The notes beneath the pieces were generated by a model, which saw only the letters and a program-made list of their open reading frames with translations, made no database searches and had not been told where the DNA came from. A stretch of DNA of 64,000 nucleotides from Fusobacterium varium (GTDB lineage: Bacteria > Fusobacteriota > Fusobacteriia > Fusobacteriales > Fusobacteriaceae), in assembly GCA_900637705.1 (NCBI GenBank), contig LR134390.1, positions 1,922,001-1,986,000 of the forward strand. Direction: 5' to 3'. The first letter of the stretch is position 1; every line of letters begins with the position of its first letter. The position numbers and the translations under genes are program-made. Shown here one piece after another: positions 898 to 17,919 of the stretch.

Positions 898-2041
898 TCA
901 CATAAACAAAAATTTAAATAAAGAATACTTATATATGTCTTTATAATCAAATAATAAACTAATAAAATGATATTTAAAATCATATAAATATATTAATGTA
1001 TCATAGGCTATAGTTCCAAAAATAAAAATATTAAAAAATTTCATTTTTTTCTTTTCAGCACTAATAAAGTATAAAATTAATAAATTAACTAGGAAAGAAA
1101 ATCTTTCAAAGATAATTAAATATCTTTGTAAAAAAAATATTAAAATAGTTAAAATATATATAATATTTTTTTCTTTTTTCTTTTTTGAAAAACAAATATA
1201 AAAAAGCAACAATGTTTTTCTGCAATACAGTAAAAAATAATTATATAAAAATCCTATTAAGTTTAGACTTTTAAAAATATTAATTGTATATTTAGAACTA
1301 TCACTATCTAGATATGCATAAGGATAAAAATAAACTTTTCCAGCTATATTATTAAAAGTATTAACTAGTCCTATTAAACATCCATCTAACTTAATAAAAT
1401 CAAAGAAAAAAATAAAATTAACCATGGTAAATATATATTAAAATTTAGTTTTTTTATGAATAACATTAAAATATATATAACAGCTACTATTAGCATTGTA
1501 TTATGAACTAATATACTAAATAGAATGTAAATTATCCCTTTGAAGTCTTTTTTAAAAATATGAAGAACCATGCCATATATACATATGGCTGTGGCTAAAA
1601 AAAATCTTATTCCAGAAAAAGCCAATAATGGTATTGAAAAAATTATTATAAAAAAATAATAACTTTTTCTCTTATTAATTATTAAAATATATGCCTTATA
1701 AAGTAAATAATAACCTAGAAAACTAGTTATAAAAACTAAGTATTCTTCTTTTAATTGAAAATAATTTATTAATCTTATTATACATTTTACATAATAATCT
1801 TTATTTGAACCATTAAAATACTCCTTATATAAGTCAAAATTATTTAATAATTCCAAATACTTTCTTATATCATAACTTTTTTCTAAAGGATGAAATTTAG
1901 ACTGTAACAATGCAAAAAATAATCCCACATTAAAAGAAGAAATTTTTTCTTATATATTCCATATATAAAATATGGTATCGAAATTAAAAAATTAAAAAAG
2001 ATTAATATAAAGAAAATAAGATTATATTTTTTTATTTTCAT
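898..2041 (-). CDS. EpsG-family polysaccharide polymerase (Wzy-like), two frameshifts
   Basis: This polytopic inner-membrane protein probably polymerises lipid-linked repeat units in the periplasm. The order of hydrophobic segments and the conserved region GIRFFLATAICIYG, followed by a second helix containing SILVHNTM, match the EpsG family. The start ATG at 2041 overlaps the end of the preceding glycosyltransferase gene by 20 bases, so the two are probably translationally coupled. Single-base losses in the runs at 1943-1948 and 1406-1412 split it into three pieces. Once repaired it is about 380 residues, normal for the family. Wzy proteins diverge strongly, so the call rests on topology, motif and operon context. 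Confidence 0.72.
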
Positions 2042-3233
2042 CAAACAACTCCATTACAAAGTCTTTATAATTTTTTTTTGCATTAAAATTTTCATGCCAA
2101 TTAATATAAGAATTGATCCGATATTCATCATACTCATTTTTTGACATATTTAATATTTTTTCTATCCCATCAATTATTTCTAATATTGTTGGATTAGCAG
2201 ATAATAAAATTCCTGTTTTTTCATTCACAATTTCATTCACTCCACCAACATTTGTTGCTATTATAGGTATTCCAAAACTTTGAACTTCCATCATTGATAC
2301 AGGTAATCCTTCTGTCGAACTTAGATGAATAAAAAATTTTATATTATTTTTAAAATAAAATTTTAATATTTCTTTGTTTTCTAATCTTCCTTTAAAATTA
2401 AAATTTATTTCTTTAAGTTATTTTTAGCATAATCTTTTAATTTATTTTTTCTATTCCATCACCAAAATGGATCCATTCTATATTTTTATCCCTATCATTT
2501 CTTTCTTCCAATTTTTTTAAACTATTGATAATCAATTCTACTCTTTTTAAGGAAATTAAATTAGAACAACTTACTATTTTTATATCAGCATTATCTATTT
2601 TTTCTATTTTTTATTAAGAAAATTATTTATTGTTCCTAAATAACTATACTTTATATTTTCTTTTTATATAATTTTTTTAAATATCTTTCTCCTTTTTAGA
2701 ACAGGGATAAATCATATCTATTCTTTCTAAAATTTCTTTTTTAAATGGTTGATATCCTCTTTCTAGATATAAATCGTAACCATGAGCTCTACTTATTGCC
2801 TTTTTTATTATATTTCTCTTTTTTAAATTACCCCCTGCATAGGCTCCATTATAAAACCAATAAGAATATAAAATTATATTTTCTTTTTTTAGGTTATATT
2901 TTTTATTATCTCTAATACTTTATTTTCTATCAATTTCGAATAAAATTGAAAACCAATCATTTTTTTTAACTTTTTAAAATTAAAATTATTTATAAGATCG
3001 CACAAATAATATTTATCTAATAAAATCTTAAATAATTCTTTATAATCTTTTAAAATTCTATATACTTTACAATTTTTGGGGACTTTTCTAGTTTGTGAAT
3101 CATTTATATTTTTAGAAATAATAAAAATTCCTTTAAAATTTTGAGATAAATAGTCTATTTCATTTTCTATAAATGTTTCTCCATATCCAAAAGGATAATT
3201 ATCTGTTATAAAAAATAGTATCTTATCATTCAT
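2022..3233 (-). CDS. Family 4 glycosyltransferase, frameshifted about six times
   Basis: This is a GT-B fold retaining glycosyltransferase. The N-terminal segment (MNDKILFFITDNYPFGYGE) has the family's glycine-rich acceptor-side loop. The C-terminal segment carries the donor-binding E-x7-E region in the form STEGLPVSMMEVQSFGIP, followed by ATNVGGVNEIV. The middle reads through only if one A/T is restored in the runs near 2899-2904, 2693-2697, 2661-2665, 2607-2612, 2445-2450 and 2412-2414. The repaired sequence includes IKIVSCSNLISLKRVELII and IEWIHFGDG, both typical of the family. It is the most heavily broken gene here. The start at 3233 overlaps the preceding dehydrogenase gene by 8 bases. 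Confidence 0.78.
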
Positions 3234-4335
3234 CTTTAGATATCTCTCTTAAACTTATTTTTTTCATTTTTAGGGTTGAAAAGTCTTTAAATTCATCAAA
3301 TTTAACAGCTAATCCTGTCATTTGTGATTTATATGCTGCTAATATTATTTTCATAGCTTCCATTCCTTGAATTCCATTTATTAATGGTTCTCTATTTTCT
3401 TCCAAGGCTTCTATAAAATCTTTATAAAGCGCTTTATGTCCATATCCATATACTGAATTAGGGTCCCCTGAATCAATTTTTAGATATTCCTCTTCTTTGT
3501 CTCCATCTATTCTCCAAGTATTTATCTTATTTACTGCCATGCCACCTATTACCACTGTTCCCTTTTCTCCTGTAATGGTTAAAGTTTCTTCTAAATTTTT
3601 AGGATAAATAATTGCACTTCCCTCAATTGTTCCTATTTTTCCATCTTTGTATCTTATTACAATTACTCCATAATCTTCTGCTTCTATATCTCTTATATAA
3701 TTAGAAGTTTGAGCATATACTGTATCTATTTCTGAATTCATCATCCAATTTAATAAATCAATATTGTGAATACATTGATTCATTAATGTTCCTCCATCTA
3801 ATTCCCATGTACCTCTCCAAGGTGCTTGTAAATAATAATTCATATCTCTTGTCCATAATATTCTAGCCATTCCATTAAAAATTTTCCCCATTTTTCCTTC
3901 AACAATAGCTTTCTTTAATAGTTGTATAGGATAATTAAACCTATTTTGATGACTTACACCTATTTTTAATCCTTTTTCTTTTGCTTTATTTACAAGTCTT
4001 TGAGCTCCTTCAATTGATAAGGCAATAGGTTTTTCAATAATTACATTTATATTATTTTCTAAACAATACAATCCTATTTCTTCATGATAACCACTTTCAG
4101 TAGAAATTATTACTACATCAATATTTTCATTTTTTATCATTTCTTTATAATCAGTATATTTATTTACTGATAAATTTAATCCTAATTTTTCATTATATAT
4201 TTTTTCTGTAGAAGTCGTCTTATCTTCAACAATATCTGAAAGAGCAATAAGCATTGCTTTATCTTTATTTCCTGCTAATCCTTCAGCTATTTTATGAGAT
4301 ATTCTTCCACAACCAATTATTGCAAATCTATACAT
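3226..4335 (-). CDS. Gfo/Idh/MocA oxidoreductase, WbpB/WlbA/GnnA-like nucleotide-sugar 3-dehydrogenase
   Basis: It probably oxidises the 3-hydroxyl of a UDP-HexNAc or UDP-HexNAc uronate to the 3-keto sugar that the DegT aminotransferase at 7331-8512 aminates. The N-terminal Rossmann motif is GCGRISHK (residues 8-15). The EKP catalytic motif is at about residues 100-102 (IIEKPIAL). The sugar-binding region GGTLMNQCIHNIDLL, around residues 181-195, resembles WlbA/WbpB. It is full length (369 residues) and intact. The UDP-HexNAc 6-dehydrogenase in the same operon favours the WbpB-type uronate substrate over the GnnA-type, but this is inference. Confidence 0.85.
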   Translation of the reverse strand: MYRFAIIGCGRISHKIAEGLAGNKDKAMLIALSDIVEDKTTSTEKIYNEKLGLNLSVNKYTDYKEMIKNENIDVVIISTESGYHEEIGLYCLENNINVIIEKPIALSIEGAQRLVNKAKEKGLKIGVSHQNRFNYPIQLLKKAIVEGKMGKIFNGMARILWTRDMNYYLQAPWRGTWELDGGTLMNQCIHNIDLLNWMMNSEIDTVYAQTSNYIRDIEAEDYGVIVIRYKDGKIGTIEGSAIIYPKNLEETLTITGEKGTVVIGGMAVNKINTWRIDGDKEEEYLKIDSGDPNSVYGYGHKALYKDFIEALEENREPLINGIQGMEAMKIILAAYKSQMTGLAVKFDEFKDFSTLKMKKISLREISKDE

Positions 4336-4343
4336 TAATTTAC

Positions 4344-4748
4344 CTACCTTTTTAAGATCTTAGCTTGTCCTTGTAAAATGATTTCTTCTTTTTGATTAGT
4401 ACATACTGTAGAAAGCAAAATTATTTTTTTTTCATTTTGTAACTCAATAATTTTTACTGTTGCTGTAATAGTATCATTTATAAATACTGGTTTAATAAAA
4501 CTTAAATATTGCTCCAAATAAATACTTCCCTCTCCTGGAAGTCTTGTTCCTAAAACTGCTGAAATTAACCCAGCCGAAAACATACCATGAACTATTTTTT
4601 CCTTAAAAAATGTTTTTTTGGCATATTCATTATTAATGTGAAGTGGGTTTGTATCTAATGATAATCCAGAATAAAGAATTACATCTGTTTCTGTTATTGT
4701 CTTCGAAATAGAAGCTTTCATTCCGATTTTAAAATCTTTATATTCCAT
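4344..4748 (-). CDS. MaoC-like (R)-specific hydratase, PhaJ type
   Basis: This small hot-dog-fold protein of 134 residues carries the R-hydratase signature: an Asp in SLDTNPLHINNEYA (about residues 31-44) and the His of KIVHGMFSAGL (about 52-62). The family hydrates trans-2-enoyl-CoA to (R)-3-hydroxyacyl-CoA. The ATG directly follows the stop codon of the LpxD-like gene at 4749-5642, so the two are coupled. In a sugar operon with an aminotransferase and acyltransferases, it may supply an (R)-3-hydroxyacyl donor for N-acylation. A role on an acyl-ACP or on a non-lipid substrate cannot be excluded. Confidence 0.8.
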   Translation of the reverse strand: MEYKDFKIGMKASISKTITETDVILYSGLSLDTNPLHINNEYAKKTFFKEKIVHGMFSAGLISAVLGTRLPGEGSIYLEQYLSFIKPVFINDTITATVKIIELQNEKKIILLSTVCTNQKEEIILQGQAKILKR

Positions 4749-5642
4749 TTATTCAACCTCTTTTAATAAAAACTTTAGAATTTTTAAATAATCTGTATGA
4801 GATACAGCAAAATTTCCTGTTACAGTTTCATTATCATTAACATTTTTAGTAACAACTGCTCCCATTGTAATTTTTGCATTTTCTCCTATTATTATTCCAT
4901 TTTTAATAGTACAATTAGGACCAAAATAAGAATTTTTTCCTATTTTTACCCTTCCACTTATTTCTACACAAGCTGTAAGGAAGGTATTTTCTCCAATAAT
5001 TACATCATGACCTATATGAACTAAATTATCTGTTTTTACATTTTTTGATAAAATAGTCTCTCCAAAAACGCCTTTATCTATTGTATTATTATTTTGTATT
5101 TCTACATTTTCTTTTATAATAACTTTTCCTGCTGATTTTATTGATAAAATTTCATCTTCAAATCTACTAAATTCAAATCCATTTCCACCTATTCTACTTC
5201 CAGCTCTAATAATACTATTTTTTTTAATAACAGTATTTGGATAGATAGTAACATTATCTTCAATCAATACATTTTCTTCTATTTCAATGTTATATTCTCC
5301 TATTGTTGCTTTAGGTGAAATTAATGCTTTAGATGAAATTTTATTTTCTTCTTTTATAAAATAAAAATTTTCTTCTACTAATTTATTATGAAGTTCAAAA
5401 AAATCTTTTTTAGGATTTTTAGAAATTAATATTCCTATATTTAAATTTTTAATTTTATCAGTTATTTTCAATGTTGTTATTATAGATGTTATTGATTTAT
5501 TTTTTATTACTTCTTCAATATATTTTTCATCATTTAAAAAAGTTAAAACTTTTCTTCCTTCATATTCTTCTGCTGTTAATCCTAACCAATCAAATTCTGA
5601 ATCTCTTATTACTTCTCCAATATTTAACTCTGATAATTTCAT
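4749..5642 (-). CDS. LpxD-like left-handed beta-helix acyltransferase (first of two)
   Basis: The protein has 297 residues. The N-terminal third is a non-repetitive uridine-binding-like domain. From about residue 107 it has many hexapeptide repeats ([LIV]-G-x4), with the conserved catalytic-type His in LVHIGHDVIIG (about residues 208-218) and the LpxD-like stretch EISGRVKIGKNSYFGPN. LpxD transfers a 3-hydroxyacyl chain to the amino group of a UDP-linked sugar. Because it lies in an O-unit operon beside an aminotransferase and a MaoC hydratase, the acceptor is more likely a 3- or 4-amino nucleotide sugar than the lipid A precursor. It sits 18 bases after the second LpxD-like gene. Confidence 0.82.
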   Translation of the reverse strand: MKLSELNIGEVIRDSEFDWLGLTAEEYEGRKVLTFLNDEKYIEEVIKNKSITSIITTLKITDKIKNLNIGILISKNPKKDFFELHNKLVEENFYFIKEENKISSKALISPKATIGEYNIEIEENVLIEDNVTIYPNTVIKKNSIIRAGSRIGGNGFEFSRFEDEILSIKSAGKVIIKENVEIQNNNTIDKGVFGETILSKNVKTDNLVHIGHDVIIGENTFLTACVEISGRVKIGKNSYFGPNCTIKNGIIIGENAKITMGAVVTKNVNDNETVTGNFAVSHTDYLKILKFLLKEVE

Positions 5643-5660
5643 CTTTTACCTCAAATTTAT

Positions 5661-6599
5661 TTATAATTTTTTCAATATTTCTTTTTTGTAATTACTAAAT
5701 TTTATAATATTTTCTAATGTATCTGCCTTTTCATTTGTCAAAATTTGATTATCTTCTATACTTTTTACTATTCTAGCTGCCATTCCTAAAGTAACATTAT
5801 TTCCTATTTGGATCCCATTCTTTATAGATGAATTTAAACCTAAAGTACAATTTTTTCCTACTATTGTACTCCCTCCTATTATCACTCCAGCAGTTATTAA
5901 AGTTCCTTTTCCTATTTTAGTATTATGTCCTACATTTACACCTGTATCTATTTTTACATAATCTTCTACAATAGTTGCTTCAATTGTTCCACTGCAAACA
6001 GTTGAAAAGGTTCCAACTTCAACATTGTCTCCAATAATCACCCCACCTATATGAGGAATTCTAAAAGTCCTTCCTTCTTTATCTCTCTCTATTCCAAAAT
6101 CTTCTCCACCAATAACACTTTTTTCTCTTATATAGCAATTTTTCCCTATTTTTACATTATTTTCTATTAGTGCCCCACTCTTAATAATTGTATTATCTCC
6201 AATTTGTACATTGCTTCCTATTTTTACAAAAGGTTCTATTATTACATTTTTTCCAATTTCTACATTTTCTCCAAAATAATATCCATCTTTAAAGAAAATT
6301 TTATATTCTTTTTTATCCTTTTTTAAAATCTCTGTTAATAATTGTGCATACCTTAATCTTGGATTTTCATCATAAATTACCAAATTGTACTCTTCTAACT
6401 TTTTAGCATCTAACTTACCATTTATTATTAAAATAGAATTTTTTATATTTTTTAATTTTTCTAATAATTCTTCATTATCTTTTTTTAAAAAAATTATTGT
6501 ATTATCTTTGGGATTGCTTAAAGTTGAAGCATTGTAGATATTGAAGTTATATTTTTCATTTATTTTTTTTACATTATACTCAAACTTTTTGGTAATCAT
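5661..6599 (-). CDS. LpxD-like left-handed beta-helix acyltransferase (second of two)
   Basis: The protein has 312 residues. Hexapeptide repeats run from about residue 108 to 290 (GENVEIGKNVIIEPF onward), with the His-containing segment NVGHNTKIGKG near residue 227 and GGEDFGIER, which resembles the GxGFG loop of LpxD. It is clearly related to its neighbour at 4749-5642 but not a recent duplicate: repeat order and loops differ. Its ATG overlaps the end of the deacetylase-like gene (AATGATTACC), with AAGGAG upstream. Two different LpxD-like proteins in one sugar operon suggest two acylated positions or a working heterologous pair. That is inference. Confidence 0.8.
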   Translation of the reverse strand: MITKKFEYNVKKINEKYNFNIYNASTLSNPKDNTIIFLKKDNEELLEKLKNIKNSILIINGKLDAKKLEEYNLVIYDENPRLRYAQLLTEILKKDKKEYKIFFKDGYYFGENVEIGKNVIIEPFVKIGSNVQIGDNTIIKSGALIENNVKIGKNCYIREKSVIGGEDFGIERDKEGRTFRIPHIGGVIIGDNVEVGTFSTVCSGTIEATIVEDYVKIDTGVNVGHNTKIGKGTLITAGVIIGGSTIVGKNCTLGLNSSIKNGIQIGNNVTLGMAARIVKSIEDNQILTNEKADTLENIIKFSNYKKEILKKL

Positions 6600-7323
6600 T
6601 TAAAATCTCCTTTGATAAAATTTCTTCAAAATTTCTTATATTCTCATTTAATGAATTATATCTTTCCCAAATAGCACCATTTAAAAAAATTTTTAATTTT
6701 TCCTCCATAGTTTTTTCATTTTCTTCATACCAAAAAGGATGAATTAAAATATGTAAAGCTTTATATTGGTTCTTCTCAATTATTTCCTCTACATTTTCTC
6801 TCCAATTCATTCTAGAATCTGAAATATATTTAAATTTATTAAAAAAAACTTTTTGATATGAATTTATTACATTAGGTATTTCTAAATCCATTTCTAAAAA
6901 CTCTTTAGAAGGCCTATGCATTGATACTATATCTATTTTCTCATTTAATATACTTGATAAAATATCCAGTTCATAATTTACATATTTTATATAATCTTCT
7001 TGATCATTTATCTTATATTTCTTTTCATCAAAATGAAGTCCTATTTTCCCTCCTAATCTTTTTATTTCTTTTACTATTTTTAATGATTTTTCTGAATTAA
7101 TATTATAAAAATCTGTACTTAATAATATAAAATATGTTGAATATACATTTAATTCTTTTTCAATTTCTGCTATTCTTAATGCTTTTTCTAATGAAGTATC
7201 TATATCATGTCTTAAAATTACTACTTTTTTCTTTTCCTTATAATTTTTATAATCAGATATTTCATAATTTTTATCAAGTAACTTTTCGATCATGCCTTTA
7301 TATGCTTTATATGTAAAATCCAT
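6580..7323 (-). CDS. Polysaccharide deacetylase-like protein (NodB fold, WbmS-type)
   Basis: This 247-residue protein has a NodB-like layout: the metal-binding Asp pair in ILRHDIDTS (about residues 36-44), KIGLHFDE in the middle, MHRPS, and a C-terminal HILIHPFW (about 192-199). Such proteins occur in O-antigen loci, where they may remove an N-acetyl group before re-acylation or act as related hydrolases. The start at 7323 is preceded by TAGGAGAATT. It lies between the aminotransferase and the two acyltransferases, which would suit a deacetylate-then-acylate step, but no substrate can be read from the sequence. Confidence 0.7.
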   Translation of the reverse strand: MDFTYKAYKGMIEKLLDKNYEISDYKNYKEKKKVVILRHDIDTSLEKALRIAEIEKELNVYSTYFILLSTDFYNINSEKSLKIVKEIKRLGGKIGLHFDEKKYKINDQEDYIKYVNYELDILSSILNEKIDIVSMHRPSKEFLEMDLEIPNVINSYQKVFFNKFKYISDSRMNWRENVEEIIEKNQYKALHILIHPFWYEENEKTMEEKLKIFLNGAIWERYNSLNENIRNFEEILSKEILNDYQKV

Positions 7324-7330
7324 AATTCTC

Positions 7331-8512
7331 CTACCTTAAAACACTTAATATATATTCTTTTTCTTCTTCTGTTAATTCTGGATCTACTGGTATTGCAATT
7401 GTTCTCTTTGAAAGATATTCTGAATTTAGCATATCCCCTTCTTTATATCCCATTTTTTTATAAACTTTTTGTAAATGTAATGGCACTGGATAATATATTC
7501 CATAACCAATTCCATTCTTTTCAAGTTTTTCTATCAATTTTTCTCTATTCTCACTCTGTAATATATACATATGATAAACATTTTTATTTTCTTTATCTAA
7601 ATTCATCAGTTTTAATTCTGTATTTTTTAAATTTTCATCAAAATACCTTGCATTTTCTATTCTCTTATCATTCCATTTATCAAGATAATCTAATTTTATA
7701 TTTAAGATTCCTGCATGAAGTTCATCTAATCTTGAATTATATCCAATTAAATAGTTATAATATTTTTTAGGATTATATACTGTATCATCTACATTTTTTT
7801 CTTCACTTACTTCTTTTTGTATATTATTTAAAAAATTAAAAGCAGTTTCTCCTTGTACTCCACTTCCGTGAGCTTTCAATGCTCTACATATAGAAGCAAT
7901 TTCATCATTATTTGTAGTTATTAATCCTCCATCTCCATATGTTCCTAAATTTTTAGTTGGGAAAAATGAAAAGCATGCTACATCTCCTATACTTCCTACC
8001 ATTTTTCCTTTATATTTTGCTCCAATTGCTTGACAAGCATCCTCTATTACATAAAGGTTATATCTTTGAGCAATTTCATTTATTTTATCCATATCTGCTG
8101 GAGTTCCAAATAGATGTACTGGCATTATGGCTTTCGTTTTATCTGTAATCGCTATTTCTATTTTTTCTGAATCAATATTAAAATCTTCTAATCTTACATC
8201 TACAAAAACTGGTTTTGCCCCTACCATTGATATAGCTTCTGCTGTTGCAAAAAATGTAAATGGTGTTGTTATAACTTCATCTCCTTCTTTTATTCCAAGA
8301 GATTTTAATGTTATTACTAGAGCATCTGTTCCATTAGCCACTCCTATAACATGTTTCACATTTAAATATTCTTTTAATCTTTCTTCTAGTTTTTTAGTAT
8401 ATGGGCCATTTATGTATGCTCCACTTTCTAATATTTCAGAAATCACTTTTTCTATATCATTTTTTAAATATTTATACTGTCTTTTTAGATTTAATAATGG
8501 AATATTCATCAT
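7331..8512 (-). CDS. DegT/DnrJ/EryC1 PLP-dependent nucleotide-sugar aminotransferase (WbpE-like)
   Basis: It transfers an amino group from glutamate to a keto nucleotide sugar. The PLP lysine is in FSFFPTKNLGTYGDGG (about residue 190), and the cofactor-ring Asp and Gln are in VIEDACQAIGA. The start is taken at 8512, where AAGGAGAAAAGT precedes ATGATGAAT. An upstream in-frame ATG at 8542 would add ten residues and overlap the dehydrogenase stop. The protein is intact at about 393 residues. It has a slightly long loop with QGETAFNFLNN near residue 215. The likely partners are the Gfo/Idh/MocA oxidase (3226-4335) and one of the acyltransferases. Confidence 0.9.
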   Translation of the reverse strand: MMNIPLLNLKRQYKYLKNDIEKVISEILESGAYINGPYTKKLEERLKEYLNVKHVIGVANGTDALVITLKSLGIKEGDEVITTPFTFFATAEAISMVGAKPVFVDVRLEDFNIDSEKIEIAITDKTKAIMPVHLFGTPADMDKINEIAQRYNLYVIEDACQAIGAKYKGKMVGSIGDVACFSFFPTKNLGTYGDGGLITTNNDEIASICRALKAHGSGVQGETAFNFLNNIQKEVSEEKNVDDTVYNPKKYYNYLIGYNSRLDELHAGILNIKLDYLDKWNDKRIENARYFDENLKNTELKLMNLDKENKNVYHMYILQSENREKLIEKLEKNGIGYGIYYPVPLHLQKVYKKMGYKEGDMLNSEYLSKRTIAIPVDPELTEEEKEYILSVLR

Positions 8513-8522
8513 ACTTTTCTCC

Positions 8523-9833
8523 TTATAATCTCCAATAATCATATTCTTTTTCAGCTTTTTCTTTATTAAATATTGATTTCACATCTATTAATAAAGGCTT
8601 AGAATATATTGGATTAAAATATTTTCTTAGTTTTTCAATTTCCATTTCTCTATATTCTTTATGTCCTACTGCTACTACTACAGCATCCATATTTTTTATA
8701 CAATTTTCATCTTCCAAAATTATTCCATATTCTCTTTTTGCTTCTTCTTTTGGTGCCACTGGATCTATTACATGAACATTAGCTCCATATTCTTTTAATT
8801 CTGTAATTACATCATTTATTTTAGAATTTCTTAAATCTGGACAATTCTCTTTAAATGTTAAACCCATTACTAAAATATCTGCTCCCTTTACTCTTATACT
8901 ATTATTGATTAATTTTTTAATAGTTTTTTCAGCAATAAATTTTGCCATTCCATCATTTATTCTTCTTCCTGATAGTATTACTTGTGCATGATATCCAAGC
9001 TCTGATGCTTTATTTGCCAAATAATATGGATCAACTCCTATACAGTGTCCTCCTACAAGTCCTGGTTTATATGGAATGAAATTCCATTTAGTTCCTGCTG
9101 CTTCAAGAACTTCCATTGTATCAATTCCTATTCTGTCAAATATCAAAGAAAGTTCATTTACAAAAGCTATATTTATATCTCTTTGAGAATTTTCTATTAC
9201 TTTTGCTGCTTCAGCTACTTTTATTGAACTAGCTCTATGTATTCCTGCTGTTATTATTTCTCCATAAACTTCTGCAATAATATCACTACTTTCTCTATCC
9301 ATTCCTGAAGTAATTTTTGTTATTGTTCTCAAAGTATTATCTTTATCAGCTGGATTTATTCTCTCTGGGGAATATCCTATTTTAAAATCTTTCCCACATA
9401 CCATTCCTGATTCTTTTTCTAAAATTGGCATACAAACTTCTTCAGTAGCTCCAGGATATACTGTTGATTCATATACAACTATTGTTCCTTTAGATAAATT
9501 TCTTCCCACTATTTTAGAAGCTCCTTCAAGTGGCCTTAAATCTGGCATTTTATTTTCAAGAACTGGAGTTGGAACTGCTACTATAATGAAGTTAGCTTCT
9601 CTCAATTTTGTTTCATCAGAAGTAAATTCTATATTTTTAGAATTTTTAATTCTTTCATCTCCAACTTCATTTGTTGGATCTTCTCCGTTTAAATATTTAC
9701 TAATTTTTCCTTTATTAATATCAAATCCAATAACATTAAATCCTTGTTCAGAGAATGTAATTGCTAATGGTAATCCAACATATCCCATTCCTACTACTGC
9801 TATTCTTATAGTTTCTATCATTTTATTATTCAT
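8523..9833 (-). CDS. UDP-N-acetyl-hexosamine 6-dehydrogenase (WbpA/TviB/WecC type)
   Basis: It oxidises C6 of UDP-GlcNAc (or the ManNAc form) to the uronate with two NAD+. The Rossmann motif is GMGYVGLPLA (residues 15-24). GYSPERINPADK lies near residue 153, the catalytic-Cys loop GGHCIGVDPYYL near 260, and GLTFKENCPDLRNS near 324. The protein is intact at 436 residues. The start at 9833 follows GAGGAAATAGA. With the adjacent 2-epimerase it fits a ManNAcA-type or ManNAc3NAcA-type uronate pathway. The epimer preference cannot be decided from the sequence. Confidence 0.92.
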   Translation of the reverse strand: MNNKMIETIRIAVVGMGYVGLPLAITFSEQGFNVIGFDINKGKISKYLNGEDPTNEVGDERIKNSKNIEFTSDETKLREANFIIVAVPTPVLENKMPDLRPLEGASKIVGRNLSKGTIVVYESTVYPGATEEVCMPILEKESGMVCGKDFKIGYSPERINPADKDNTLRTITKITSGMDRESSDIIAEVYGEIITAGIHRASSIKVAEAAKVIENSQRDINIAFVNELSLIFDRIGIDTMEVLEAAGTKWNFIPYKPGLVGGHCIGVDPYYLANKASELGYHAQVILSGRRINDGMAKFIAEKTIKKLINNSIRVKGADILVMGLTFKENCPDLRNSKINDVITELKEYGANVHVIDPVAPKEEAKREYGIILEDENCIKNMDAVVVAVGHKEYREMEIEKLRKYFNPIYSKPLLIDVKSIFNKEKAEKEYDYWRL

Positions 9834-9854
9834 TCTATTTCCTCACCATAAAAT

Positions 9855-10939
9855 TTATTTATATAAAAAATTTATTATTTTATCTACAATAATTTCTGAA
9901 GCTTTTCCATTTCCAAAAATTTCAAATATATTTTCTTTAAAATAATTCTCATTTAATTCTTTAAATAATTCTTCTTTATTTAAATCATTCCAAACATGTA
10001 TATAACCTGCTTTCTCTAATTCTTTCCAAGGAGTATATTCAAAAATAACTACACATTTTTTATTTAAAAAAGCAACTTCTTTTTGTAATCCTCCTGAATC
10101 AGTCAATACAGCTTTTGCAAAATTTATACAGCTTAAAATTTCATTATATCCCAAAGGAGCTATAAACTTTATATTCTTGAAACTTTTTATATTAATTTCA
10201 AACTCTTTTAATTTAGCTTGTGTTCTTGGATGAATTGGAAATAAAACTTTTTTATCTAAACTATTAATTATTTTCAATAAATGTATTAACCTTTCTTTAT
10301 CATCTACATTAGTTGGTCTATGTAGAGTCAATAAATAATAATTATATCTTTCTAATTTTTCTTTTTTTATAATTTCATCATTTCCATAATATTCTTTATT
10401 TTCTAAAATTCTATCAAGCATTACATCTCCAGAATTGATTCCTTTTGTATATAAACCTTCTACTTTCAATTCTTCCATAGAAGATAATAAAGGAGTAAAA
10501 ATATATGTTGAAATATGATCTGTTAAAATTCTATTGATTTCTTCTGGTTCAAATATATTATGTTCCCTTATTCCTCCTTCAACATGAAAAATTGGAATAT
10601 GTAATTTAGAAGCTGATATTGCCCCTGCTAATGTTGAATTTGTATCTCCATATAATAAAACTAATTTTGGTTTTTCATATAATAAAACTTTTTCTATTTC
10701 AATTATCATTTTTCCAGTTTGTTCACCATGATTTCCAGATCCAATATTTAGATTGTATTTAGGTTTATTTATTTTTAATTCTTCAAAAAAAATATCAGAC
10801 ATATTCTGGTCATAGTGCTGACCTGTATGGATATAAATTTCATCTATTTTTTTTCTTTTAATTTTTTAGTTACTATTGAAGCTTTTATAAATTGTGGTCT
10901 TGCTCCTACTATTGTTACAATTTTTATATTTTTCTCCAT
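9855..10939 (-). CDS. UDP-HexNAc 2-epimerase, WecB/WbpI family, one frameshift
   Basis: This non-hydrolysing epimerase interconverts gluco and manno forms at C2 of a UDP-HexNAc or its uronate. The N-terminus (IVTIVGARPQFIKA) and the body are in different frames. Restoring one base in the T8 run at 10847-10854 joins them through IDEIYIHTGQHYDQNMSD. Signatures include LYGDTNSTLAGA, HVEGGIRE, PEEINR, HPRT and TDSGGLQKE. The GGIREHN segment differs from the commoner AGLRSFNR. Because the L-FucNAc pathway already has its own epimerase (13425-14549), this one probably serves the uronate branch, as WbpI does. Confidence 0.88.
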
Positions 10940-10967
10940 ATTAAACTCCTTTTCTATAAAGAATATT

Positions 10968-12095
10968 TCATATATTTTCTAAAATTATTTTTATCTGTTT
11001 ATCCCATGAAAGGTTTTCAATAGCAAATTTTCTAATTTCTTCTGATTTTACATTTAAATTTTCATACCATTCTAATATTTTATTTAAATCTAATAAAGTT
11101 TCATCATTTGATACTTCATAATAAAATTTTAATTCTTTATTTAAAGAAATGTCTTTATACCCTATAATAAATGGAATTCCTCTTGCACAATATTCTCTAA
11201 CTTTTAATGTACTTCCCATAATATCTCCTGTTCTAAAAAAACCTAGACTTCCTATTGCTATATCTGAATCATTATATATATCATCCAATTTTTTACCAGA
11301 CTTATATCCATAAAAGGTAACATAATCTTCTAATTTATTTTCTTTAACTAGTTTTTTTAAATTATTTACTACTTCTTTATCCCCATCTCCAACTATATGA
11401 AATTTAATTATTTCTTTTGGATTATTTTTATAATACTCAACCATAGATAAAATAAATCTATCAAAACCATGCCAAAAAGCTATTCCTGCAACTCCTATAA
11501 AATTAATTTCATTTATACTTTTTTTTACATTTTTATCAATAATTGGTATTTCATTAGGATCTATTCCATTTGATATTTTTATAGTTTTTATTCCAAAAAT
11601 TTCATCATCATCAGAAAAAGTTATAATTTTATCTACATAGTTACACATTTTATCTCTATATTTTCTTTCAATGAAATATTTTATTTGTCTAATTATGTCC
11701 TTATGAACTAATTCTTTATCATATGGATATGTTGGAACTTCCAAAATTACTTTTATATTCTTCTCTTTTATTTTTTTTAAGAATTTAATGAAACAAGGAT
11801 TAGCCATATATACATATCTTATATAAACAATCTCAAAGTTATTTTCAAAAATATACTTTAATGTTTTTTCATATTTGTAATAAAGTAATTGTTTAGTCAT
11901 TATATTACCAACTGATTTCTCTAAAGTAATATTTGTATTAAATATTTTTCTAAATATTTTATTATATTCAATTTTTTCACAACAAATCTCTACTTCTACT
12001 CCTAATTTTTTTAATGCTGCTACTTGGTACAATATTTTTTTGCTTATACCATCAAATTCTTTAATTTCCATTGGTACAAAATATAATAATTTCAT
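10968..12095 (-). CDS. Family 4 glycosyltransferase
   Basis: This is an intact GT-B glycosyltransferase of 375 residues. The N-terminus (MKLLYFVPMEIKEFDGISKK) has the usual acceptor-domain beta strand and loop. The C-terminal half contains VAGIAFWHGFDRFI, FHIVGDGDKE, VTFYGYKSGKKLDDIY and, near residue 310, STLKVREYCARGIPFI in the position of the donor-binding E-x7-E motif. Its ATG overlaps the stop of the UbiA-like gene as ATGA once that gene's frame is corrected. It is probably a repeat-unit assembly enzyme of unknown linkage. Confidence 0.85.
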   Translation of the reverse strand: MKLLYFVPMEIKEFDGISKKILYQVAALKKLGVEVEICCEKIEYNKIFRKIFNTNITLEKSVGNIMTKQLLYYKYEKTLKYIFENNFEIVYIRYVYMANPCFIKFLKKIKEKNIKVILEVPTYPYDKELVHKDIIRQIKYFIERKYRDKMCNYVDKIITFSDDDEIFGIKTIKISNGIDPNEIPIIDKNVKKSINEINFIGVAGIAFWHGFDRFILSMVEYYKNNPKEIIKFHIVGDGDKEVVNNLKKLVKENKLEDYVTFYGYKSGKKLDDIYNDSDIAIGSLGFFRTGDIMGSTLKVREYCARGIPFIIGYKDISLNKELKFYYEVSNDETLLDLNKILEWYENLNVKSEEIRKFAIENLSWDKQIKIILENI

Positions 12096-12899
12096 TTTTT
12101 CTCTCCCCTATTCTTTATTTTTTTCTCTAAAATTAATAAAGCAATTAAATAAAACATAAAAAAATATAATGAAAAAAAGTTAAAAAATATCCTTTTTTTG
12201 AAAATGTTCCTATTAATAAAGATAATAAAATTTCTATTCCATAAAATTTAACTCTAAATAAATTTATTTTATCTTTTTTTATAAAATTAAAATTGATTCT
12301 ATCATGTGTTGTATATAATAATGTTCTCACTAAAGGAATTGTTAATAGGAAAATAAATAATATTAATATTTTATTTATCGAATCAACAACTAATATAGGA
12401 ACTGATAAATATTTAAAAAACATTAAGAAAAACATTGTAATTATATTATTATTATTTCTAAAATAATTATGAAATGAATAAACCATATTTAATAATCCTA
12501 AAAAAATTAAAAATATAAAAATATTTAATGTATTTATATTTAAATTATTCAGAACAATAAAAATAATAATTACTATTAAAATTCTCAATGAAATCATTAA
12601 GGGATAAATTTTATTTAATACTATACTTTCTTCATCATTTAACCTTAAAGTTGGATTTTTTTCATATCTTATTGTGTAAACATCATTATAAATATATCCT
12701 ATTTCATATACTATATTTAAAGCTAAAAAAGAAAATATAAATATTATTAAATTATTATGAATATTAAAATTAGAAATATAAAAAATAATATAAATACTGG
12801 TAATACATAATTATATATATATGAAATTTTAGTTTCTATTTTATTTATTCTAGTCAAAAATGAATAATTTAATGGTATAAAAAACTTAAGATGATTCAT
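12092..12899 (-). CDS. Polytopic membrane protein resembling UbiA prenyltransferases, two frameshifts
   Basis: The repaired protein has about 270 residues, 7-9 hydrophobic segments, and the hydrophilic loop EIGYIYNDVYTIRYEKNPT. This resembles the first prenyl-diphosphate/Mg2+ loop of UbiA proteins (ND, acidic residue, P..R). One base is missing in each of the runs 12780-12785 and 12158-12164. With both restored, the reading frame runs to a TGA overlapping the next ATG. It starts directly after the HAD stop (TAAATG, GGAGGAG upstream). A HAD phosphatase plus UbiA pair recalls polyprenyl-phosphate phosphoribosyl transferase systems. The family assignment is tentative because the second UbiA motif is not obvious. 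Confidence 0.5.
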
Positions 12900-13423
12900 T
12901 TACTCCTCCAAAAAGAATGCTTTCTCTATATCTTTGAACTTTTTCTCTGCCCTTTTATTTTTATATAAATATATTTTTCATCTGCTAATTTTAAAATATT
13001 TATATCTGTAGTATTATCACTACATACCATTAGTTTTTTATAAAAATATTTTTTTAAAACCTTATCTTTTTCCCCTATATTAGCAATTTCAAAATCTACA
13101 TTTAGTTTTTTAGCAGCATTTTCTACTAAATGGAAAGGTGCATTAGAAATTATTATAATTTTATAACCTTCTCTTCTTTTTTTTTCTAATAATTTTAATG
13201 CACTTTCTCTAAAAGGTAGTATAAAATTTTTTTTAAAATTACTTGGTATTAAATCATATTGTTTCTTTAATATTTTTAATGTATATTTTGGAAAAATTTT
13301 ATAAAAAATTTTTAAAATTAATGATTTATAAATATTAGTTTTATAAAATTTACTTAATATTTCTATATGTGAATTCTCTTCATATAAAGTTCCATCTAAA
13401 TCAAAGACTGCTATTTTTTCCAT
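12900..13423 (-). CDS. HAD-superfamily phosphatase (HAD-IB-like), frameshift near the C-terminus
   Basis: HAD motif I is VFDLDGTLYEE (residues 6-16). Motif II is the Ser of IIISNAP (about residue 96), and the motif IV region is MVCSDNTTDINIL (about 132-144). The frame runs out after YIYIKIKG. Adding one base in the T5 run at 12958-12962 extends it to KRAEKKFKDIEKAFFLEE and a TAA directly before the UbiA-like ATG. The protein is about 174 residues. Tight coupling to the UbiA-like gene suggests the two act in sequence, the phosphatase perhaps removing the phosphate from a polyprenyl-linked phosphosugar. That is inference from context. Confidence 0.82.
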
Positions 13424-13424
13424 A

Positions 13425-14549
13425 CTATTTTCCCCAAATAATTTTATCTATTATTTTGTAGTAACTTAATATTATCCTTACTACTTTATCTGCTACATTT
13501 ATATCTCTATAATCTACTGGTAATTCATATCTGTTATTTTCTTCAAAATATGTTCTCACCATATCTATTGCCTGTATTATTTCTTCTCCCTCTATTCCAC
13601 CTATTATCATATTTCCTTTATCTAATACTTCTGGTCTTTCTGTACTTGTTCTTATTAGTATTCCAGGAAAATTCAACATTGATGATTCTTCAGACAATGT
13701 TCCTGAATCTGATATCACTGCATAAGCATTCTTTTGCAGTTTGTTATATTCAAAGAATCCAAATGGTTTTAAATTTTTTACTAAAGGATTGAATTTAAAA
13801 TTTCTTTCCTCTATTTTTTTCATACTTCTTGGATGTGTTGAATATATTACTGGAATATTGTAATGTTCTGCTATCATATTTATTCCATTCATAAGTTTAA
13901 AGAAATTCTTTTCTATATCTATATTCTCTTCTCTATGAGCGCTTACAAGAATATATTTTCCTTTTTCTAATCCCAATTTCTCTAAAGGTTTGCTTTGGTC
14001 TATTTTCTCCATATTTTTGATTAAAACCTCATGCATAGGAGATCCAGTTACATATATATGTTCTTTTCTAAACCCTTCTGATAGAAGATATCTTCTACTG
14101 TGTTCTGTATAAGGTAGATTTATATCACTTATATGATCTACTATTTTTCTATTTATTTCTTCTGGAACATTTTGGTCAAAACATCTATTTCCTGCTTCCA
14201 TATGAAATACTGGTATTTTTAATCTCTTTGCTGCTACTGCTGCAAGGCATGAATTGGTATCTCCAAGTATAAGAAGAGCATTTGGCATTTCTTTTTCTAA
14301 AACTTCATAAGATTTAGCTATTATATTTCCTATTGTTTCTCCTAAATGTTTTCCTACAGAATTCAGATAATAATCTGGTTCTCTTAAACTTAACTCTTCA
14401 AAAAATACCTGATTCAATGTATAATCCCAGTTCTGTCCTGTATGAACCAATATATGTTCAAAATATTTATCACATGCTTTTATAACTTCTGAAAGTCTTA
14501 TTATCTCTGGTCTTGTTCCTACTATTGTCATTACTTTTATTTTTTTCAT
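13425..14549 (-). CDS. fnlC: FnlC/WbjD/CapG-type UDP-HexNAc C2-epimerase of the L-FucNAc pathway
   Basis: It converts UDP-N-acetyl-L-pneumosamine to UDP-N-acetyl-L-fucosamine, the last step of the pathway. The protein is intact at 374 residues. Family signatures are VGTRPEIIRLSEVI (residues 9-22), VHTGQNWDY, LILGDTNSCLAA, MEAGNRCFD, PEEINR, VSAHREEN, YSTHPRS and SDSGTLSEESS. The QNWDY and AGNRCFD variants distinguish the CapG/FnlC branch from housekeeping WecB. It lies 3 bases after fnlB, in the same order as the fnlA-fnlB-fnlC block of E. coli O26 and the capE-capF-capG block of S. aureus. Confidence 0.92.
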   Translation of the reverse strand: MKKIKVMTIVGTRPEIIRLSEVIKACDKYFEHILVHTGQNWDYTLNQVFFEELSLREPDYYLNSVGKHLGETIGNIIAKSYEVLEKEMPNALLILGDTNSCLAAVAAKRLKIPVFHMEAGNRCFDQNVPEEINRKIVDHISDINLPYTEHSRRYLLSEGFRKEHIYVTGSPMHEVLIKNMEKIDQSKPLEKLGLEKGKYILVSAHREENIDIEKNFFKLMNGINMIAEHYNIPVIYSTHPRSMKKIEERNFKFNPLVKNLKPFGFFEYNKLQKNAYAVISDSGTLSEESSMLNFPGILIRTSTERPEVLDKGNMIIGGIEGEEIIQAIDMVRTYFEENNRYELPVDYRDINVADKVVRIILSYYKIIDKIIWGK

Positions 14550-14552
14550 TCG

Positions 14553-15658
14553 TTACACCTCTAAGTAGTATGTATCTGGATTTTCTTTATCAAATAACTC
14601 ATTTGCCCATATCACAAGTATCATTTCTCCTGTACCTGTGTTTGTTACATTATGGGTATATCCAACTGGAATATCCACCACTTCTAATTTTTTATCTGAT
14701 ACAGGATATTCAATTACTTTATCACTGTATATATTTCTAAATCTGATAATAGCTTCTCCCTTTATTACTAAGAATTTTTCATTTTTTGTATTATGATAGT
14801 GATTTCCTCTTGTTATTCCTGGTTTTGAAGTTGAAATTGAAAATTGTCCACTATCTATTGTTCTTAATATTTCAACAAAAGCTCCTCTATTATCTTTATG
14901 TTCTGTAAGTTCATAGGAAAATTCATCTTCTGGAAGATATGATAGATAAGTTGAATATAGTACCCTTTCAAATCCTTCTCCTACTTTTTCTATTACAAGA
15001 GTTTTTCTATTATTTTTAAATGAATGGATAAGATCTGAAATCTCTCCAAGAGTTTTGCTATATACTGTTGATATCTCATAATATTCTTTAATTTCTCCCT
15101 GCTTCTGCAAATGAGAAACAAAAGTATTTACAACATCATCTATATATACAAAATTTAATTTTATATTTCTATCTGATATAGTTATATCTATATTATTTGC
15201 TATATTATGACACCAAGTGGCAATTACAGAATTATAGTTTGGTCTACACCATTTTCCAAAGACATTTGGAAGTCTGTAGATATATATTTGCGCATGATTT
15301 CTTTTACTATATTCTCTTAAAAAATTTCTCCCTCTAACTTACTCTTTCCATAATCATTATCTTTTTCTGCCTGAATCGACGAAGTTACTAGAATAGGTAT
15401 TTTTAGTTTTCTCTTTTCTATTACATCTATCAGCTCTTTTATAGTATCTCTATTCCCTTTATAGAATTCTTCTGGATTCTCTGGTCTGTTTATTCCTGCA
15501 AGATGAAAGATAAAATCTATTTTTTCTATATATTCTTCAATTTCATCTATACTGTTTTCTTTGTCAAATTGGTGAATAACAATCCCATCTATTCTTGATA
15601 ATCTTTCTACAAGATTTTTCCCTATAAAGCCTTTTGCACCTGTTACAAGAACTTCCAT
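14553..15658 (-). CDS. fnlB: FnlB/WbjC/CapF-type bifunctional reductase/C3-epimerase, one frameshift
   Basis: The N-terminal half is an SDR domain (VTGAKGFIGKNL, then FIFHLAGINRPENPEEFYKGN). The C-terminal half is a cupin (GNHYHNTKNEKFLVIKGEA, then YTHNVTNTG). Together they make UDP-N-acetyl-L-pneumosamine from the FnlA product. The frame stops after KLEGEIF. One base added in the A6 run at 15319-15324 continues it with REYSKRNHAQIYIYRLPNV and FVYIDDVV into the cupin half. The full length is about 368 residues, as expected for CapF. It sits between fnlA and fnlC with almost no spacing. Confidence 0.92.
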
Positions 15659-15660
15659 TG

Positions 15661-16685
15661 CTATTTCACCCCAAATTCTTTTAATTCATCTTGCACTTCA
15701 TATAGGTCTAAAATCATCTTTTTTAATTCTTCTTCATTTAATCTATATGTATTATGAGAATTATATTCATCTGCCTGTGTAATAACTTCCTGTCCATCTT
15801 CAAAATATTTTGAATAATTAAGATCTCTTCCATCTGCTGGAACTCTAAAATATTCTCCCATATCTATTGCTCTTACTTTTTCCTCTTTTGTCATTAGGAC
15901 CTCATAAAGTTTTTCTCCATGTCTTGTTCCTATTATTTTTACTTCATGTTCTGGTCTTCCTAATATATCCTTCATTGCGTGAGCAAGAACTTCAATTGTT
16001 GCTGCTGGTGATTTTTGGATAAATAGATCTCCATTCTTTCCATTTTTAAATGCAAATAATACTAAATCTACTGCTTGATCTAAACTCATCATAAATCTTG
16101 TCATATTCGGATCTGTTACTGTTATCGACTTTCCATGTCTTACCTGATCTATAAATAAAGGAATTACTGAACCACGTGATGCCATTACATTTCCATATCT
16201 TGTAAGGCATATTGTAGTGTCATCATCTTTTAAATTCCTTCCCTTTGCTACTATCACTTTCTCCATAAGCGCTTTTGACATTCCCATTGCATTTATTGGA
16301 TAAGCTGCTTTATCTGTACTTAAGCAAACTACTTTTTTACTTTAGATGCTATTGCTGCATTTAAAACATTTTCTGTTCCTAATATATTAGTATAAACAGC
16401 CTGTACTGGATAAAATTCACATGATGGTACCTGTTTAAGAGCTGCTGCATGAAATACAAAATCTACTCCCCTCATTACATCCATTACTGAGTTATAGTCT
16501 CTTACATCTCCTATATAGAACTTTAATTTAGGATTATTATATATTTTTCTCATATCATCCTGTTTTTTTTCATCTCTTGAAAAAATTCTTATTTCTCCAA
16601 TATCAGTTTTTAAAAATCTCCTGAGTACAGCATTTCCAAATGACCCTGTTCCTCCTGTTATTAATAAAACCTTATCTTTAAACAT
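15661..16685 (-). CDS. fnlA: FnlA/WbjB/CapE-type UDP-GlcNAc 4,6-dehydratase/5-epimerase, one frameshift
   Basis: This soluble SDR carries out the first step of UDP-L-FucNAc synthesis. The NAD-binding motif is ITGGTGSFGNAVLRRF (residues 9-24). The active site has the Met-x3-Lys form (AMGMSKALME) that replaces the usual Tyr-x3-Lys in this family. The frame breaks after ASKVKK. One base added to the T6 run at 16333-16338 gives KKVVCLSTDKAAYPINAMG without a gap. The repaired length is about 342 residues, normal for CapE. The stop lies two bases before the fnlB start. Confidence 0.93.
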
Positions 16686-16698
16686 AAAATCTATCTCC

Positions 16699-17898
16699 TT
16701 AATCTTTTTTCAATACATCCATTATTGTTTTATATGCCTTATCTACTCCCAAATATTCTTCATAGTATTTTCTTCCATTATTTCCTAACTGTTTTCTTAA
16801 ATCTTCATTTTTATATAAAATTAAAAATTTCTTATACAAGTCCTCTATATTTCCAGCTTCAGCATAAATTCCTCCTTGAACTTCTTTTTCAAGAAATTTT
16901 CCATAGTCTTTTGCTGAACATCTATCTAAACTAGCCAAAATTGGAAGGGATAATTTAAAATAATCTGTTGTCTTTGAAGGGAAATTTGGTACTGTAAATC
17001 TCTCATCAAGACTTACAAGTCCTATATCACAAGCGCTTGTAAATTTTTCATAGTCTTCTCTTGGCAATTGTTCTATGAATTCAATATTTTTAAGTTTTTA
17101 TCCTTAGTTATTTTTTTAATCTTTCTTTTTCTGAACCATTACCTACAAATATGAATTTTACATCTGGTAATTCTAGCCATTTCTCAGCTAAAGATAGTAT
17201 ATTTTCTAACTTTTGTGGCTTTCCCATATTTCCACCAAATATAGCTAAAAAATCTTCTTCTGAATACCCATATTTCTTTCTTATTTCTTCTTTATTTATT
17301 TTAAGTTTAGGCTTTATATATGCCCAATTTTTTAAAAGAATAATTTTTTTATCTTCTATTTTAAATAAATTTTTATATATTTTTTATTTCCTTCTGACAT
17401 AACTGTTATATAATCTGAAACTTCTAATGCTTTTTTATATTTATTATTAAAATACTTTATTAAAAATTTATTTTTTATAATTTCTAAATCAATTGCATTT
17501 TGTGGAAAAATATCCCAAATTATTAATAATACTTTGCATTGAAAATGATTCCTCATTTTTTTTATTAAAAAAGGATTGTTAAACATAGGAGTTGATAAAA
17601 TTATTAAATCTATTTTTTCATCTATTCTTTCTTTTATTTTCATAGAAAATAAAAACGGTATTTTTAATATTGTCATGCCTTTATCTAATTTAGTTGTTCC
17701 TTTTGAATAGTACTTTCCACATCTTATTTTTAGCAATTTTATATTTTCTAATTTTTTAAAATAAGTTTTTCCTTCTTCTAATATAGTTGCTACAATAACT
17801 TCATTTTCTTGATTTGAAAATTCTTTTACCAATTCTTTTTCTAATGTTGAATCCTTAATATTTTCAGAATATCTTGGAAGCAAAAATAATACATTCAT
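16699..17898 (-). CDS. wbuB: WbuB-like family 4 glycosyltransferase, probable L-FucNAc transferase, three frameshifts
   Basis: The N-terminal part (LFLLPRYSENIKDSTLEKEL) and the C-terminal part (SKTTDYFKLSLPILASLDRC, with the E-type donor-binding region) are the two halves of a GT-B enzyme. The repaired centre reads LLKNWAYIKPKL and FLAIFGGNMGKPQKLENIL. Single A/T losses fall at 17372-17376, 17111-17117 and 17087-17091. WbuB adds L-FucNAc and is normally encoded next to fnlABC, as here. About 400 residues is the usual length. Specificity is inferred from the neighbours. Confidence 0.82.
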
Positions 17899-17919
17899 CT
17901 TTTTTCTCCAATACTAATT

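What the first reader, a model, noticed from the sequence alone, without database searches (positions are those of the whole stretch)
4344..6599. MaoC-type hydratase with two different LpxD-like acyltransferases in a sugar operon
A PhaJ-like hydratase is coupled to an LpxD-like enzyme, with a second LpxD-like enzyme, a deacetylase-like protein and an aminotransferase next to it. LpxD uses (R)-3-hydroxyacyl donors and MaoC/PhaJ makes (R)-3-hydroxyacyl-CoA. This suggests a surface sugar carrying 3-hydroxyacyl (for example 3-hydroxybutyryl) amide groups, made by its own donor-forming enzyme.
Basis: inference. Interest (0 to 1): 0.6.

Follow-up and report, generated by a model that had tools for sequence, protein, structure and literature searches.

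The report
Surface sugar with own 3-hydroxybutyryl supply
A surface-polysaccharide operon of a Fusobacterium relative appears to build a diamino-uronic acid sugar in which the usual acetyl groups are put on, or exchanged, by two relatives of the lipid A enzyme LpxD, with an (R)-specific hydratase recruited from butyrate fermentation next to them, probably to supply a 3-hydroxybutyryl group.

Summary
In detail: window 3226-10802 (- strand) is one tight operon of a Wbp pathway (WbpA, WbpE, WbpB, and a 2-epimerase with the tryptophan diagnostic for UDP-GlcNAc3NAcA). It carries two different LpxD-like transferases, a distant CE4-type deacetylase and an intact PhaJ-like MaoC hydratase. It has no WbpD acetyltransferase. 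Relatives show what the parts do. LpxD1 (4749-5642) stands beside WbpA/WbpE in other Fusobacteriaceae and between Wbp genes in Paracoccus, Limimaricola and one more proteobacterium, so it most likely acylates the C3 amine in place of WbpD. The deacetylase is paired with an LpxD-like protein in the window, another Fusobacteriaceae genome, a Bacteroidota genome and Sphingomonas. It resembles the proposed VimE/VimA acetyl exchange at C2 of Porphyromonas. The MaoC family in Fusobacteriaceae sits beside butyryl-CoA dehydrogenase and CoA-transferase genes, which points to crotonyl-CoA and (R)-3-hydroxybutyryl-CoA. The weak point: none of the four related Fusobacteriaceae loci has a MaoC, so the hydratase is an add-on. 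One independent Bacteroidota locus does combine MaoC, an LpxD1-like protein and deacetylases. No structure or enzyme assay exists. New variant of a known kind, moderately interesting.

The parts
9855..10802 (-). WbpI-type UDP-sugar 2-epimerase (C-terminal 315 residues; the first ~40 residues lie in another frame)
   Evidence: E 3e-67 to T. thermophilus UDP-GlcNAc3NAcA 2-epimerase 8sxv, with Trp at the position of Trp307 (PMC10622841); upstream stop and frame change near 10850
8523..9833 (-). WbpA/TviB-type UDP-GlcNAc 6-dehydrogenase
   Evidence: NCBIfam TviB model E 2e-147, below its cut-off; 71-82% identical in four related loci
7331..8542 (-). WbpE-type 3-aminotransferase
   Evidence: PF01041 E 5e-123; WbpE structures 3nu7/3nys among the best PDB matches
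6580..7323 (-). polysaccharide-deacetylase-like protein (distant CE4/NodB superfamily), candidate C2 N-deacetylase
   Evidence: No direct Pfam hit, but 3 of 6 family members match Polysacc_deac_1, best E 5e-6; invariant RHD.D, H97, H136, H195; paired with LpxD-like genes in four lineages
5661..6599 (-). LpxD2, LpxD-like N-acyltransferase, candidate C2 acyltransferase
   Evidence: Groups with deacetylase-paired LpxD-like proteins and lipid A LpxD, 100/99; catalytic His225 kept; orthologue only in G030
4749..5642 (-). LpxD1, LpxD-like N-acyltransferase, candidate C3 acyltransferase in the place of WbpD
   Evidence: Stands among Wbp genes in window, G030, G028, F. vincentii, G072, Paracoccus, Limimaricola, G1152; His212 kept, short C-terminal tail
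4344..4748 (-). PhaJ-like MaoC (R)-specific enoyl-CoA hydratase, candidate donor-forming enzyme
   Evidence: 1iq6 E 5e-27; Asp32, His37, Ser63, Leu66 kept; 61-65% identical to two fermentation paralogues in the same genome
3226..4335 (-). WbpB/WlbA-type Gfo/Idh/MocA 3-dehydrogenase
   Evidence: 3q2k E 5e-70 and 3q2i E 2e-66; 68-80% identical in four related loci

Best explanation
The operon makes a nucleotide-activated 2,3-diamino-2,3-dideoxy-uronic acid for a surface polysaccharide by the Wbp route, with modified acylation. WbpA oxidises UDP-GlcNAc at C6, and WbpB and WbpE put an amine on C3. LpxD1 then acylates that amine in place of the missing WbpD. The deacetylase-like protein removes the original acetyl group at C2 and LpxD2 puts another acyl group there, as LpxC/LpxD do in lipid A synthesis and as VimE/VimA are proposed to do in Porphyromonas. 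A WbpI-type epimerase may then invert C2. The PhaJ-like hydratase turns crotonyl-CoA, abundant in a butyrate-forming fermenter, into (R)-3-hydroxybutyryl-CoA, which LpxD1 and/or LpxD2 transfer as an (R)-3-hydroxybutyramide. Shown here: gene content, families, catalytic residues, epimerase specificity residue, synteny. Inferred: every reaction, the positions, and the acyl group.
For: Wbp genes with a diagnostic Trp in the epimerase. LpxD1 beside or between Wbp genes in eight loci of two phyla, and no WbpD found among the operon's genes. LpxD1 and LpxD2 fall in separate groups, LpxD2 with the deacetylase-paired proteins and lipid A LpxD. Deacetylase plus LpxD-like pair recurs in G030, G111 and Sphingomonas, and a deacetylase-like gene stands beside a WbpI-like gene in a Wbp locus of G245. 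Precedent for a C2 acetyl exchange on a Wbp sugar: PMC7468200. MaoC relatives stand in butyryl-CoA dehydrogenase/CoA-transferase/BKACE operons; catalytic and short-chain pocket residues kept; no PhaC. Shortened C-terminal tail in both LpxD-like proteins, 29-31 residues against 41-47 in lipid A LpxD, where this helix binds ACP, fits a CoA donor (PMC6820557). Independent MaoC + LpxD1-like + deacetylase locus in G168. A Fusobacterium O-antigen with an unusual 3-N-acyl 2,3-diamino-uronic acid, GlcNAc3NAlaA, is known (PMC8048906).
Against: The four related Fusobacteriaceae loci with LpxD1, one of them with LpxD2 and the deacetylase, have no MaoC, and G030 has no MaoC match anywhere. LpxD1 could therefore simply use acetyl-CoA. 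The deacetylase is only a distant family member and was not compared with VimE itself. The two structure predictions were too poor to use. The G168 MaoC is nearer to mesaconyl-CoA hydratases and sits with HpcH/HpaI-type lyases, so its acyl group is probably different. The epimerase and several neighbouring genes look frameshifted in this assembly.
Confidence: 0.5

Rival explanations
1. LpxD1 is a plain acetyltransferase replacing WbpD. MaoC is a recently inserted copy of a fermentation gene that serves general C4-CoA metabolism and has nothing to do with the sugar.
For: LpxD1 stands without MaoC in four related loci. The same genome has two close MaoC paralogues in catabolic operons.
Against: MaoC sits inside the operon with zero spacing to LpxD1 and 8 bases to WbpB. 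It keeps all catalytic residues but has diverged several-fold faster than its relatives (branch 0.57 against median 0.096), which fits a new role better than a redundant copy. A MaoC in an LpxD1-like sugar operon recurs in another phylum.
Confidence: 0.25
2. MaoC feeds only one position: LpxD1 puts (R)-3-hydroxybutyryl on C3, while the deacetylase and LpxD2 do a separate reaction, for example on another sugar of the repeat or with acetyl or another acyl group. (A narrower form of the best explanation, not exclusive with it.)
For: MaoC directly follows LpxD1. The deacetylase/LpxD2 pair exists in G030 without any MaoC. The Sphingomonas pair stands in a locus resembling the UDP-FucNAc route rather than a Wbp locus.
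Against: Nothing specific; the data do not separate C2 from C3.
Confidence: 0.35
3. The hydratase makes a different donor, for example a longer or branched (R)-3-hydroxyacyl-CoA, or a C4 compound other than 3-hydroxybutyrate.
For: The G168 MaoC is of the mesaconyl-CoA hydratase type and is flanked by HpcH/HpaI lyase-like genes, so the kind of acyl group can vary between loci.
Against: Ser63 and Leu66 of the short-chain pocket are kept, and the nearest relatives are beside butyryl-CoA dehydrogenase.
Confidence: 0.15

Closest known systems
Wbp pathway of Pseudomonas aeruginosa / Bordetella (WbpA, WbpB, WbpE, WbpD, WbpI)
   Same: Four of five enzymes are present, including the epimerase with its diagnostic Trp
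   Different: WbpD is replaced by an LpxD-like protein; a deacetylase, a second LpxD-like protein and a hydratase are added
Wbp/Vim pathway of Porphyromonas gingivalis and Tannerella forsythia (PMC7468200)
   Same: Wbp sugar plus a CE4-type deacetylase and a second N-acyltransferase, proposed to exchange the C2 acetyl group
   Different: VimA, described there as a putative N-acetyltransferase related to a FemAB-like family, transfers serine or glycine; here the second enzyme is LpxD-like and no amino acid donor is implied. Homology of the deacetylase to VimE was not tested
3-hydroxybutanoyl transfer by FdhC/QdhC on dTDP-Fuc3N/Qui3N (E. coli O103, Acinetobacter, Hafnia; PMC4869667, PMC3726653)
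   Same: Puts (R)-3-hydroxybutanoyl on a sugar amine of an O-antigen
   Different: Different sugar. A hydratase gene was not found mentioned in the two papers read
LpxC/LpxD of lipid A synthesis
   Same: Deacetylate C2, then N-acylate with an (R)-3-hydroxyacyl group; LpxD fold and catalytic His
   Different: Shorter C-terminal tail; the genome has its own separate lipid A LpxD; the deacetylase is not LpxC
PhaJ (R)-specific enoyl-CoA hydratase of Aeromonas caviae (1iq6)
   Same: Gapless alignment, catalytic Asp/His and pocket Ser/Leu
   Different: Lies in a sugar operon; no PHA synthase in the genome

Membership tests
Wbp pathway locus | UDP-GlcNAc 6-dehydrogenase, 3-dehydrogenase and 3-aminotransferase together | tested here: met
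Wbp pathway locus | 2-epimerase with Trp in place of Arg, specific for 3-N-acylated uronic acid | tested here: met
   PMC10622841; but its N-terminal codons are out of frame in this assembly
Wbp pathway locus | WbpD/WlbB-type N-acetyltransferase | tested here: not met
   No WbpD-like family match among the operon's genes; LpxD1 in its place. The whole genome was not searched for WbpD
PhaJ (R)-specific enoyl-CoA hydratase | MaoC hot-dog fold with the Asp-x4-His catalytic pair | tested here: met
   (residue roles from own knowledge of the A. caviae PhaJ structure work)
PhaJ (R)-specific enoyl-CoA hydratase | (R)-specific hydration of crotonyl-CoA | not testable with these tools
   needs an enzyme assay
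LpxD (lipid A) | Left-handed beta-helix with catalytic His | tested here: met
LpxD (lipid A) | Groups with the lipid A LpxD of the same organisms; full ACP-recognition C-terminus | tested here: not met
   LpxD1 outside (100/99), LpxD2 outside the lipid A LpxD clade (100/100); tails 29-31 against 41-47 residues. Works like LpxD, is not LpxD
CE4/NodB polysaccharide deacetylase | Polysacc_deac_1 domain and conserved metal-binding Asp/His | tested here: inconclusive
   3 of 6 relatives match PF01522, the window protein itself does not; conserved Asp/His present
Wbp/Vim pathway | VimE homologue and VimA homologue beside the Wbp genes | tested here: inconclusive

The most novel reading that the evidence does not exclude
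A second, lipid A-like acylation system working on a polysaccharide sugar: both amines of a diamino-uronic acid are acylated by LpxD-derived enzymes after a deacetylation step, using a short (R)-3-hydroxyacyl-CoA made by a dedicated hydratase taken from butyrate fermentation. If so, surface antigen structure would be tied to fermentation metabolism.
Probability: 0.3. Interest if true: 0.6.

Novelty: new variant of a known kind. Interest (0 to 1): 0.45.

Why it matters
3-Hydroxybutyryl groups decorate many bacterial surface antigens, but in the papers read here the source of the acyl donor is not addressed. A donor-forming hydratase inside the sugar operon would be a genetic marker that predicts such groups from sequence. 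LpxD1-like proteins that fill the WbpD slot, and recurring deacetylase/LpxD-like pairs, would also let annotators recognise sugar-modifying enzymes that are now labelled as lipid A enzymes, even in haloarchaea that have no lipid A.

Tried and rejected
(1) LpxD1/LpxD2 as duplicate lipid A LpxD: rejected, the genome has its own LpxD, which groups elsewhere. (2) MaoC as a PHA gene: no PhaC in the genome. (3) Conserved MaoC-LpxD1 coupling in the family: not found in four related loci nor in the other loci scanned except G168. (4) Structure prediction of the deacetylase and of LpxD1 from single sequences gave mean pLDDT 53 and 50, and the fold search was uninformative. (5) The degenerate-pattern scan of genome contigs found only distant LpxD-type genes. 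(6) My first MaoC profile contained three wrongly oriented sequences; it was rebuilt and all loci rescanned. (7) Paper searches for MaoC or hydratase in O-antigen clusters found no precedent, but subscription journals are mostly missing. (8) Several plasmid hits to LpxD1 proved to be ordinary lipid A lpxD loci.

Full report
OBSERVATION. The window lies in a 3.3 Mb single-contig genome. The nearest DNA relatives of this operon in the plasmid collection are Fusobacterium vincentii and Cetobacterium, so it is most likely a member of the Fusobacteriaceae. On the - strand, 3226-10802 holds eight genes in the order epimerase, WbpA, WbpE, deacetylase-like, LpxD2, LpxD1, MaoC, WbpB, with gaps from -20 to +21 bases; LpxD1 and MaoC adjoin with no gap.

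THE SUGAR PATHWAY. The flanking enzymes identify the product class. WbpA is close to TviB. WbpE matches the WbpE structures. The dehydrogenase downstream of MaoC is closest to 3q2k/3q2i, which I know as WlbA, the WbpB equivalent. The epimerase is closest in the PDB, apart from one entry named UDP-GlcNAc 2-epimerase (4neq), to the T. thermophilus UDP-GlcNAc3NAcA 2-epimerase, and carries Trp where that enzyme has Trp307. According to PMC10622841 this Trp replaces the Arg of UDP-GlcNAc epimerases. The second epimerase of the window, 13425-14549, has the Arg-type motif. The product is therefore most likely a 2,3-diamino-2,3-dideoxy-uronic acid acylated at C3. Such a sugar with an unusual C3 acyl group, GlcNAc3NAlaA, is known from the O-antigen of F. 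nucleatum ATCC 51191 (PMC8048906). The first ~40 codons of the epimerase are out of frame in this assembly, so the gluco or manno form cannot be decided.

LPXD1 FILLS THE WBPD SLOT. No WbpD acetyltransferase was seen among the operon's genes. Orthologues of LpxD1 (48-62% identity) are in four more Fusobacteriaceae loci, directly behind WbpA/WbpE in three of them and in the same operon, after LpxD2, in G030. More distant full-length relatives (27-33%) stand between the Wbp genes on plasmids of Paracoccus and Limimaricola and in G1152. In a tree of 29 proteins the LpxD1 group is separated with 100/99 support from lipid A LpxD and LpxD2. The simplest reading is that LpxD1 acylates the C3 amine made by WbpE.

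DEACETYLASE AND LPXD2. The deacetylase-like protein has no Pfam match of its own, but three of six relatives match Polysacc_deac_1 (best E 5e-6), and the family keeps RHDxD and further His residues. It is paired with an LpxD-like gene in the window, in G030, in G111 of the Bacteroidota and in Sphingomonas; haloarchaeal plasmids carry relatives of both. In the tree LpxD2 falls on the same side as these deacetylase-paired proteins and lipid A LpxD, which also acts after a deacetylase. A Wbp pathway with an added deacetylase and second acyltransferase is proposed for Porphyromonas and Tannerella, where VimE is thought to remove the C2 acetyl group and VimA adds serine or glycine (PMC7468200). By analogy I propose a C2 acyl exchange here. 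Homology to VimE was not tested.

THE HYDRATASE. MaoC aligns without gaps to PhaJ 1iq6. It keeps Asp32, His37, Ser63 and Leu66, which correspond, from my own knowledge of the PhaJ structure work, to the catalytic pair and two pocket residues for short acyl chains. The genome has two more copies, 61-65% identical, one beside a BKACE gene and one beside CoA-transferase and acyl-CoA dehydrogenase genes. Most homologues in other Fusobacteriaceae lie beside butyryl-CoA dehydrogenase-like, CoA-transferase, thiolase-like or BKACE genes. This points to crotonyl-CoA as substrate and (R)-3-hydroxybutyryl-CoA as product. The window copy sits on a long branch (0.57 against a median of 0.096), as expected after a change of role. 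There is no PHA synthase in the genome. Both LpxD-like proteins have a shorter C-terminal tail than lipid A LpxD (29-31 against 41-47 residues); in LpxD this helix contacts ACP (PMC6820557), so a CoA donor is plausible.

HOW FAR THE LINK HOLDS. None of the four related Fusobacteriaceae loci has MaoC, and G030, which is otherwise very similar (WbpA-WbpE-two glycosyltransferase-like genes-epimerase-deacetylase-LpxD2-LpxD1-WbpB), has no match in the whole genome. So MaoC is an addition at this locus, and the acyl group probably differs between the loci. Among about 30 related loci scanned, one more, G168 of the Bacteroidota, joins an LpxD1-like gene, two WbmS-like deacetylases, two HpcH/HpaI lyases, a MaoC of the mesaconyl-CoA hydratase type, a formyltransferase and an aminotransferase in one operon. 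Recruitment of MaoC enzymes to such sugar operons has thus probably happened more than once, but with two cases no statistics are possible.

VERDICT. Observation confirmed. It is a new variant of the Wbp pathway, probably with a dedicated donor-forming hydratase, and can be tested by one NMR/MS analysis and three enzyme assays.

Noticed in passing
window 10780-10980: The 2-epimerase gene is interrupted near its start: its first ~31 codons end in a stop at a run of A, and the rest follows in another frame. Phase variation, a broken gene or an assembly error are all possible.
   Followed up: partly
window 898-3233 and 14553-17067: Several neighbouring genes appear as adjacent fragments (EpsG-like polymerase, a group 1 glycosyltransferase, two epimerase/dehydratase-type genes), suggesting frameshifts in this region of the assembly or decay of the locus.
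   Followed up: partly
L089 (G168, Bacteroidota) 9733-18033: Operon with LpxD1-like transferase, two WbmS-like deacetylases, two HpcH/HpaI lyase-like genes, mesaconyl-CoA hydratase-like MaoC, formyltransferase, asparagine synthase and aminotransferase: a candidate route to another unusual N-acyl sugar.
   Followed up: partly
L086, L087, L088 (G443, G385, G377): LpxD1-like genes with a family 2 glycosyltransferase-like gene as neighbour in all three genomes, without Wbp genes nearby; function unknown.
   Followed up: no
L064, L067, L069 (haloarchaeal plasmids): Deacetylase-like genes in glycan loci of haloarchaeal plasmids, two of them (L064, L067) with LpxD-like genes; LpxD annotations there cannot mean lipid A synthesis.
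   Followed up: no
L116 (G245, Bacteroidota) 1157-13858: A Wbp-type locus with WbpA, WbpE, WbpI-like, WbpB-like and a small hexapeptide transferase, with a deacetylase-like gene directly before the epimerase.
   Followed up: partly
L060 (NZ_CP084075.1): The 2.1 Mb record filed as plasmid pSB055A of Fusobacterium vincentii looks like a chromosome in the plasmid collection.
   Followed up: no
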